Shown here: in pieces, positions 920 to 1,816 of the stretch | How the letters are laid out: each line of letters starts with the position of its first letter | Position numbering within the stretch: position 1 is the first letter of the stretch | NCBI GenBank assembly: GCA_001801365.1 | Contig: MGXL01000113.1 | Span: 7,175-17,186 of the forward strand | Length of the DNA: 10,012 bases | Direction of reading: 5' to 3' | DNA from: Gammaproteobacteria bacterium RBG_16_57_12 | GTDB lineage: Bacteria; Pseudomonadota; Gammaproteobacteria; RBG-16-57-12 | The notes under the pieces: generated by a model | Told to the model about the DNA's origin: nothing | The model's input: only the letters and a program-made list of their open reading frames with translations | Databases searched by the model: none | Position numbers and translations under genes: made by a program

Positions 920-1816
920 ATGAGGATAGTTTTATTAGGTGCACCTGGCTCCGGCAAAGGTACACAGTCCCAGAAGCTCGTCGACAAATATCACATTCCC
1001 CAGATATCAACCGGCAATCTCCTCCGCGCCGCCGTCACCGGAGGTTCTCCGCTAGGCAAGCAGGCAAAGGGCTTTATGGAAGCGGGACAGCTCGTCCCCG
1101 ATCATATTGTACTGGGGATGATCGAGGAGCGTCTCAGTCACAAGGATGTGCGCAAGGGATTTATACTTGACGGCTTTCCGCGAAACATACCTCAGGCCCA
1201 GGCGCTGGATGAGCTGCTCGACAAGGTACACCAGCCCCTGGATGCAACCATTCTGATCGATGTCGATCTGGATGTCCTGATCCAGCGTATTACCGGCCGC
1301 CGCACCTGTCTCAGCTGCGGGCAGGTATACAATATTTATACCTCGCCCTCCAGACTGGACGACCGTTGTGACAAGTGTGGCGGCGATCTTCATCACCGCA
1401 TGGACGACAATGAAGAGACTATCGGTAACCGGCTCCGCATCTATGAAGCTCAGACCACGCCCCTGATCAATTATTACCGTCAGCAGGGCAAATTAAAAAA
1501 TATTCAAGGTGTTGGAGAAATAGACGATATCTTTACCAAGTTAATCACTGTCTTAGACAGATTAACTAACATTAAACCTGAAAAACAACGCGAGGAGAGT
1601 ACAAAAATGAGTACAGCAAAGAAGAAGACCGCAACCAAGAAGGCTGCCCCGAAGAAGAAGGCCGCAGCAACCAAGAAGAAGGCCGTTGCCACCAAGAAAA
1701 AGGCTGCCGTGACCAAGAAGAAGGCCGCTGCCAAGAAGAAAACAGCAACCAAGAAGAAGGCCGCCGTGAAGAAGAAGACGGCGACCAAGAAGAAGGCCGC
1801 TGCCAAGAAGAAATAA
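920..1816 (+). CDS. adk: Adenylate kinase with in-frame histone-H1-like lysine-rich C-terminal tail
   Basis: Adenylate kinase reversibly converts ATP + AMP to 2 ADP in the cytoplasm. Residues 7-15 are the P-loop GAPGSGKGT; the AMP-site motif STGNLLRAAV follows at about 30-39, and DGFPRN lies near 84-89. The LID (about 123-160) carries four cysteines, C130, C133, C150 and C153, the pattern of zinc-binding long-form Adk, and R/D residues of the RRIYE-like region follow. The start at 920 gives the canonical MRIVLLGAPG; GGGAG at 903-907 is a rather distant ribosome binding site (12 nt). Bacterial long-form Adk is usually about 214-220 residues, which fits an end near LITVLD (residue 213). Here the frame continues to 298 residues: 214-229 is linker and 230-298 is a Lys/Ala/Thr tail with 32 lysines in 69 residues and no acidic or aromatic residues. 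Enzyme identity is certain; whether the tail is normally made as part of it is not. Confidence 0.93.
   Translation: MRIVLLGAPGSGKGTQSQKLVDKYHIPQISTGNLLRAAVTGGSPLGKQAKGFMEAGQLVPDHIVLGMIEERLSHKDVRKGFILDGFPRNIPQAQALDELLDKVHQPLDATILIDVDLDVLIQRITGRRTCLSCGQVYNIYTSPSRLDDRCDKCGGDLHHRMDDNEETIGNRLRIYEAQTTPLINYYRQQGKLKNIQGVGEIDDIFTKLITVLDRLTNIKPEKQREESTKMSTAKKKTATKKAAPKKKAAATKKKAVATKKKAAVTKKKAAAKKKTATKKKAAVKKKTATKKKAAAKKK
1592..1597 (+). promoter_or_regulatory. Internal ribosome binding site inside the adk frame
   Basis: GAGGAG at 1592-1597 lies 9 nt before the in-frame ATG at 1607. It is a better placed Shine-Dalgarno than that of adk itself, and it argues that the lysine-rich protein was, or still is, translated on its own. 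In the adk frame these bases are read as part of Arg-Glu-Glu-Ser. Confidence 0.6.
1607..1816 (+). CDS. Nested histone-H1-like lysine/alanine-rich protein (69 residues, internal start)
   Basis: Read from the internal ATG this is a 69-residue, extremely basic protein: MSTA followed by eleven lysine blocks (ten KKK, one KK) separated by 3-4 residues of Ala, Thr, Val or Pro. It has no acidic, aromatic or cysteine residues and no folded domain; the family pattern is that of bacterial histone-H1-like proteins and the tails of AlgP or PhaF, which bind DNA or polyphosphate-like anions through charge. A nucleoid-binding role is therefore inferred, not shown. It shares frame and stop (1814-1816) with adk, but has its own ribosome binding site 9 nt upstream and a natural MSTA-type start. 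Separate translation is my preferred reading; a pure Adk tail is the alternative. Confidence 0.55.
   Translation: MSTAKKKTATKKAAPKKKAAATKKKAVATKKKAAVTKKKAAAKKKTATKKKAAVKKKTATKKKAAAKKK
1619..1813 (+). repeat. Degenerate 18-21 nt tandem repeats coding (KKK + 3-4 small residues)
   Basis: Eleven imperfect coding units of 18 or 21 nt built on ACCAAGAAGAAGGCC-like cores. Lysine is mainly AAG, with occasional AAA, and the Ala, Thr and Val codons vary, so the array is old or selected at protein level. Such arrays can change length by slippage or recombination. Confidence 0.8.

What the first reader, a model, noticed from the sequence alone, without database searches (positions are those of the whole stretch)
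920..1816. Adenylate kinase frame runs uninterrupted into a histone-H1-like lysine tail
Seen directly: the adk frame passes its usual end (about residue 213, after LITVLD) without a stop and continues 85 residues, the last 69 being KKK-Ala/Thr repeats with 32 lysines. Known: bacterial Adk is usually near 214-220 residues, and Lys/Ala-rich repeats bind nucleic acids in AlgP, PhaF and H1-like proteins. Inferred: a loss of the adk stop has fused a metabolic enzyme to a DNA- or RNA-binding tail, which could tether ATP/ADP balance to the nucleoid or ribosomes. Both other frames stop at once just past the Adk end (TAA at 1563-1565 and 1567-1569), so a single-base indel would restore a normal Adk. 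This could be an assembly error, a recent fusion, or a programmed shift.
Basis: partly seen in the sequence, partly recalled or inferred. Interest (0 to 1): 0.75.

Follow-up and report, generated by a model that had tools for sequence, protein, structure and literature searches.

The report
Adenylate kinase with nested histone-like tail
A bacterial energy enzyme, adenylate kinase, is built in one piece with a lysine-rich, histone-H1-like tail, and the join between them appears to hold a second start signal from which the tail could also be made on its own.

Summary
The frame is real: adk (920-1816) runs without a stop into an 84-residue tail whose last 69 residues hold 32 lysines. It is not a one-off accident. 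A tailed Adk was found in at least 92 of 369 sampled Gammaproteobacteria genomes (87 with tails of 20% lysine or more), some of them single-contig. So neither assembly error nor frameshift is needed. The window's three order-mates lack the tail.

Such internal start signals recur at the linker/tail junction of other tailed adk genes. They exceed codon-shuffle controls, are followed by a small second residue (12 of 13, against 12 of 56 weak-site ATGs), and in one family of 19 loci the site is kept while the linkers diverge.

Best reading: one gene, two products, a tailed Adk and a free 7-kDa H1-like protein. The fusion is well supported. The second product is well supported for some relatives but only suggestive here: synonymous resampling gives as good a site 15% of the time. 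The tail's ligand is inferred; no polyphosphate kinase was found in this genome (86% complete).

The parts
920..1561 (+). Adenylate kinase core, residues 1-214, with four-cysteine lid
   Evidence: NF001380 295 bits (cut-off 251), PF00406 and PF05191; catalytic and lid residues invariant in a 24-sequence alignment; confident fold to about residue 220
1562..1606 (+). Linker, residues 215-229, carrying the internal ribosome-binding site
   Evidence: Sequence; predicted as the end of a long helix 201-229 with low confidence from 221
1593..1597 (+). AGGAG, candidate internal Shine-Dalgarno site, 9 bases before the ATG
   Evidence: Duplex energy -9.3; recurs in relatives
1607..1609 (+). In-frame ATG (codon 230), candidate second start
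   Evidence: candidate product of 69 aa, 7.2 kDa, charge about +31
1607..1816 (+). H1-like Lys/Ala/Thr tail with stop codon
   Evidence: disordered in the model, residues 230-298
1846..1882 (+). Terminator-like hairpin behind adk-tail
   Evidence: Pattern scan: 16 pairs, T-rich tail

Best explanation
The gene encodes an intact adenylate kinase carrying a disordered polycationic H1-like tail and probably, from an internal ribosome-binding site and ATG in the linker, also the free 69-residue tail. Shown: the continuous frame, the intact Adk domain, the wide recurrence of the fusion, and the recurrence and conservation of internal start signals in relatives. Inferred: that ribosomes start at 1607 in this organism; that the tail binds nucleic acid and so holds Adk on the nucleoid or ribosomes; and that the free tail shares or competes for the same sites and so sets how much Adk is tethered.
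For: Frame and domains. Fusion in at least 92 of 369 class genomes and in 119 of 119 other listed database hits of 7538 (the query held the tail, which favours such hits). Internal starts: in 132 unique tailed genes 28 have a tail ATG with SD energy at or under -8.5 against 13.7 (synonymous shuffle) and 2.2 (codon shuffle); in 78 representatives 12 against 5.5 and 1.2; no shuffle of 300 reached the observed value. Strong-SD ATGs have a small second residue in 12 of 13 against 12 of 56 weak-SD ATGs, p 3e-6, and lie where Lys density rises, p 0.0025. In family f65, 19 of 19 loci keep AAG and 17 of 19 keep GAG at the site, while other tail Glu codons are GAG in 19 of 144 and other linker Lys codons AAG in 40 of 143. 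In the window, of 59 in-frame internal ATGs in ten reading frames only codon 230 of adk and codon 22 of the 8452-9489 ORF (evidently that gene's true start) reach -9.2. AGGAG-to-ATG spacing is 9 in 29 of 33 strong sites.
Against: In the window alone synonymous resampling gives an equal or better site with P 0.15. The genus has one genome and its three order-mates have no tail, so conservation of this particular site cannot be tested. Most tailed adk genes have no strong internal site: 28 of 132 at -8.5, 39 of 132 at -6. At -6 the synonymous control on representatives is reached in 12 of 300 shuffles. Six of the 13 strong sites and 19 loci are one family, so they are not independent. AAG is common in f65 tails as a whole (667 of 1235 Lys codons), so the AAG part of the argument holds against the linker only. 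Two of the 19 f65 loci (L161, L162) have GAA at the site and fall short of -6. No expression data were available.
Confidence: 0.55

Rival explanations
1. Only the long fusion is made in this organism. The SD-like sequence is a by-product of a Glu/Lys-rich linker; the tail simply tethers Adk.
For: Synonymous resampling P 0.15 for the window; most tailed relatives have no strong internal site.
Against: Codon shuffles, second-residue bias and f65 conservation in relatives; small second residue (Ser) and position at the disorder boundary in the window.
Confidence: 0.33
2. The tail binds polyphosphate and places Adk on polyphosphate granules, where ADP made from polyphosphate would be turned over.
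For: AlgP, with a KPAA-repeat tail, associates with polyphosphate granules (PMC9239181, passages).
Against: No PPK1 (PF02503) and no PPK2 (PF03976) match in this genome, while the control genomes gave 7 and 8 of 14. The assembly is 86% complete. Relatives were not checked.
Confidence: 0.1
3. The SD-like sequence in the linker slows ribosomes so that Adk folds before the tail is made; it starts nothing.
For: It lies just behind the folded domain.
Against: A pause needs no ATG, no fixed spacing and no small second residue, all of which are seen.
Confidence: 0.06
4. Assembly error or single-base indel joins two genes.
For: Both other frames stop just past the Adk end; order-mates are untailed.
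Against: Same architecture in many independent assemblies, eight of them single-contig.
Confidence: 0.02

Closest known systems
Adenylate kinase (NF001380, TIGR01351; solved relatives such as 5g3y)
   Same: Residues 1-214 match along the whole model; four lid cysteines; best solved match 5g3y at 253 bits
   Different: 84-residue polycationic tail and a candidate internal start
NF010381 (PRK13808), a 335-position adenylate kinase model
   Same: An Adk model much longer than usual; that its members bear a Lys-rich tail is recalled, not checked
   Different: 223.7 bits against a cut-off of 426, so not a member
AlgP and PhaF (Lys-rich H1-like C-terminal domains)
   Same: Disordered Lys/Ala-rich C-terminal tail on another domain; AlgP binds DNA and associates with polyphosphate granules (PMC9239181, passages)
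   Different: No enzyme domain in AlgP (recalled); KPAA repeats there, KKK-Ala/Thr here
Bacterial in-frame internal starts (such as the short form of CheA; recalled)
   Same: One frame, long and short product
   Different: Here the short product would be a whole H1-like protein; not shown experimentally

Membership tests
Adenylate kinase | Full-length match above the curated cut-off | tested here: met
   NF001380 295 bits against 251, residues 1-214
Adenylate kinase | P-loop, catalytic arginines and lid intact | tested here: met
   Invariant columns of A1 include G7-T15 except S11, R36, R88, R123, R160, R171 and C130, C133, C150, C153; the catalytic role of these residues is recalled
Adenylate kinase | Catalytic activity | not testable with these tools
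   No assay
H1-like nucleoprotein (HC2, AlgP type) | Match to a curated family model | tested here: not met
   Tail alone: no Pfam match under 0.5 and no NCBIfam match; PF07382 is precomputed for some relatives
H1-like nucleoprotein (HC2, AlgP type) | Lys/Ala-rich, disordered, strongly basic | tested here: met
   32 K and 21 A of 69, pI 11.5, pLDDT under 50 over 230-298
H1-like nucleoprotein (HC2, AlgP type) | Binds nucleic acid | not testable with these tools
   No assay
Two-product gene with internal start | In-frame start codon with SD at usable spacing | tested here: met
   AGGAG, 9 bases, ATG
Two-product gene with internal start | Site better than codon choice alone would give | tested here: inconclusive
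   Window P 0.15; relatives exceed the controls
Two-product gene with internal start | Site conserved among close relatives | tested here: inconclusive
   Conserved in f65; no tailed close relative of the window exists in the collection
Two-product gene with internal start | Second product detected | not testable with these tools
   Needs N-terminomics or a tagged construct

The most novel reading that the evidence does not exclude
A large group of Gammaproteobacteria keeps adenylate kinase on the nucleoid or ribosomes through an H1-like tail, and several lineages turned the same frame into a two-product gene whose internal start yields a free H1-like protein. The ratio of free tail to tailed Adk sets how much adenylate kinase is tethered, linking adenylate balance to chromosome or ribosome state.
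Probability: 0.2. Interest if true: 0.85.

Novelty: new variant of a known kind. Interest (0 to 1): 0.6.

Why it matters
Adenylate kinase is usually treated as a small soluble enzyme that balances adenine nucleotides throughout the cell. A widespread form with a strongly polycationic tail suggests that in many mostly uncultured Gammaproteobacteria it has a fixed address. The nested start makes a direct test possible: one gene would supply both a tethered enzyme and a histone-like protein. Where source names were shown, such proteins are called just adenylate kinase, so the tail and any second product go unseen.

Tried and rejected
Assembly error and frameshift: rejected, because the same fusion occurs in many independent assemblies, eight of them single-contig.

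A free H1-like gene joined by a lost stop, as the general origin: not supported. A free Lys-rich ORF follows the stop in 7 of 80 untailed genes, all of the less similar Adk type. One search showed such ORFs also in L018, L021 and L022, which one search did not list under its stricter rule. L001-L026 came from a scan whose patterns included a Lys-rich word, so that sample leans towards Lys-rich neighbours.

Polyphosphate tether in this organism: no PPK1 or PPK2 found.

Common origin of the two leaders: AACAACGCG(A)GGAGA precedes both ATGs of the window (11 of 1000 shuffles; 2 of 200). Of the other 32 strong sites only L200, L057, L202 (one genus, 4, 5 and 13 of 200) and L179 (13 of 200) came near. 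Left as a curiosity.

Transfer of the gene: not claimed. In the 115-row tree the window groups with L118/L122 (support 90) and its order-mates lie outside the tailed clade. In a 60-row tree of my own choice, with long branches left out, window and order-mates form one clade (support 90, not starred). One single clade of tailed rows is not rejected (p-AU 0.73), nor shown.

Literature: no paper on an Adk/H1-like fusion was found. Searches held no paper; (15 of 27 listed) and 57 I saw listings only, likewise. The library holds open-licence papers only. Of PMC9239181 I read passages.

Rows dropped: of 142 tailed loci 10 with identical core DNA were dropped, and 132 and 78 (80% clusters) were tested. 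L129 and L194 missed my tail rule. Loci L198 and L199 hold no Adk. Of the 92 class loci, 10 have no stop in the piece held. The match list was cut, so 92 of 369 is a lower bound. For some searches I chose rows with long open frames, so 92 of 114 loci is no frequency. The tail rule is loose: 10 of 142 tails are under 20% Lys, the lowest 7%.

Full report
1. The observation. The frame from ATG 920 is open to the TAA at 1814-1816, 298 codons. The best Adk model, NF001380, matches residues 1-214 with 295 bits against a cut-off of 251. Then come 15 linker residues and, from Met230, 69 residues with 32 Lys, 21 Ala and 10 Thr. The core is near neutral (computed charge 0, pI 7.0); the last 69 residues carry about +31, pI 11.5. 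AlphaFold2, on a 24-row alignment, gives a confident Adk to about residue 220 and pLDDT under 50 for 230-298.

2. It is not an accident of this assembly. A database search gave 7538 hits, of which 120 were listed. One is the window's own gene read from a later Met (P0002). All 119 others carry a tail by my rule; the query held the tail, which favours such hits. In a class sample of 369 genomes at least 92, the window's included, have a tailed Adk, 87 of them with tails of 20% Lys or more. Eight are single-contig assemblies. A tailed Adk also occurs in a Bacteroidia MAG (L023, 39% core identity). Complete tails run from 56 to 464 residues. The window's order holds four genomes in the collection. 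The other three have a 217-residue Adk without a tail. The tail was gained in, or lost around, the window's lineage; the trees do not settle which.

3. Codon 230 is an ATG (1607-1609). AGGAG (1593-1597) lies nine bases before it, with a duplex energy of -9.3. Of 59 in-frame internal ATGs in ten window reading frames only two are that strong: this one and codon 22 of the 8452-9489 ORF, evidently that gene's true start, since a signal-peptide-like stretch begins there. But synonymous resampling of the eight codons before the ATG gives as good a site with P 0.15. On the window alone the site is suggestive only.

4. The same in relatives. In a first look 19 of 87 tail ATGs reach -6 against 21 of 475 ATGs inside the Adk core. 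In 132 unique tailed genes 28 have a tail ATG at -8.5 or under; synonymous shuffles give 13.7 and codon shuffles 2.2 on average, and 0 of 300 reach 28. In 78 representatives 12 stand against 5.5 and 1.2, again 0 of 300; at -6 the synonymous control is reached in 12 of 300. Two features that the SD score does not use agree. Strong-SD ATGs are followed by Ala, Ser, Thr or Gly in 12 of 13 cases against 12 of 56 (p 3e-6; in all unique genes 24 of 33 against 20 of 92), and they lie where lysine density rises (p 0.0025). In family f65, 19 of 24 genomes have a tailed Adk. At the site AAG stands in 19 of 19 and GAG in 17 of 19, against AAG in 40 of 143 other linker Lys and GAG in 19 of 144 other tail Glu, while the rest of the linkers has diverged. 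Over whole f65 tails AAG makes up 667 of 1235 Lys codons, so the stronger part of the argument is GAG. These loci share ancestry. On the tree the strong-SD state needs 7 changes, of which starred branches force 3. A majority of tailed genes have no strong site.

5. Mechanism. Shown: one frame, an intact enzyme domain, a polycationic disordered tail, and recurring internal start signals. Inferred: two products from one mRNA, binding of the tail to nucleic acid, tethering of Adk, and sharing of sites by the free tail. AlgP is the nearest tested precedent for such a tail (PMC9239181, passages): it associates with polyphosphate granules and, without polyphosphate, apparently with the nucleoid. This genome gave no PPK1 or PPK2 match (86% complete), so nucleic acid is the likelier partner here. 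The full-length query found no second match in this genome at E up to 1, so the tailed enzyme is probably its main Adk and its only protein of this tail type; a short biased protein could be missed. Many f65 and f121 genomes also hold an untailed Adk, 42-51% identical to the window's.

6. Known or new. The core is an ordinary adenylate kinase, and the tail has an H1-like composition without a family match. In-frame internal starts are known in bacteria (recalled). The combination was not found in print in the searches made. I rate it a new variant of a known kind.

Noticed in passing
8452-9489 (-): The listed ORF start is probably 21 codons too early: codon 22 (MQRTSWIAALLLL...) has a strong SD (-10.0) and begins a signal-peptide-like stretch. 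No Pfam match.
   Followed up: partly
3855-4337 (-): Small protein with a weak RNA recognition motif match, PF00076, 22.4 bits against a cut-off of 20.7.
   Followed up: no
890-919 and 1584-1606: The leaders of both ATGs share AACAACGCG(A)GGAGA (11 of 1000 shuffles).
   Followed up: partly
families f65 and f121 (L161-L190, L200-L228): Many genomes with a tailed Adk also carry an untailed, 42-51% identical Adk, which suggests a division of labour.
   Followed up: no
L195, tail codon +104: A second strong SD (-11.6) stands before an in-frame GTG inside the Lys-rich tail.
   Followed up: no
L012, L014, L016, L017, L019, L051, L216: Free Lys-rich H1-like ORF shortly after an untailed adk of the less similar type.
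   Followed up: partly
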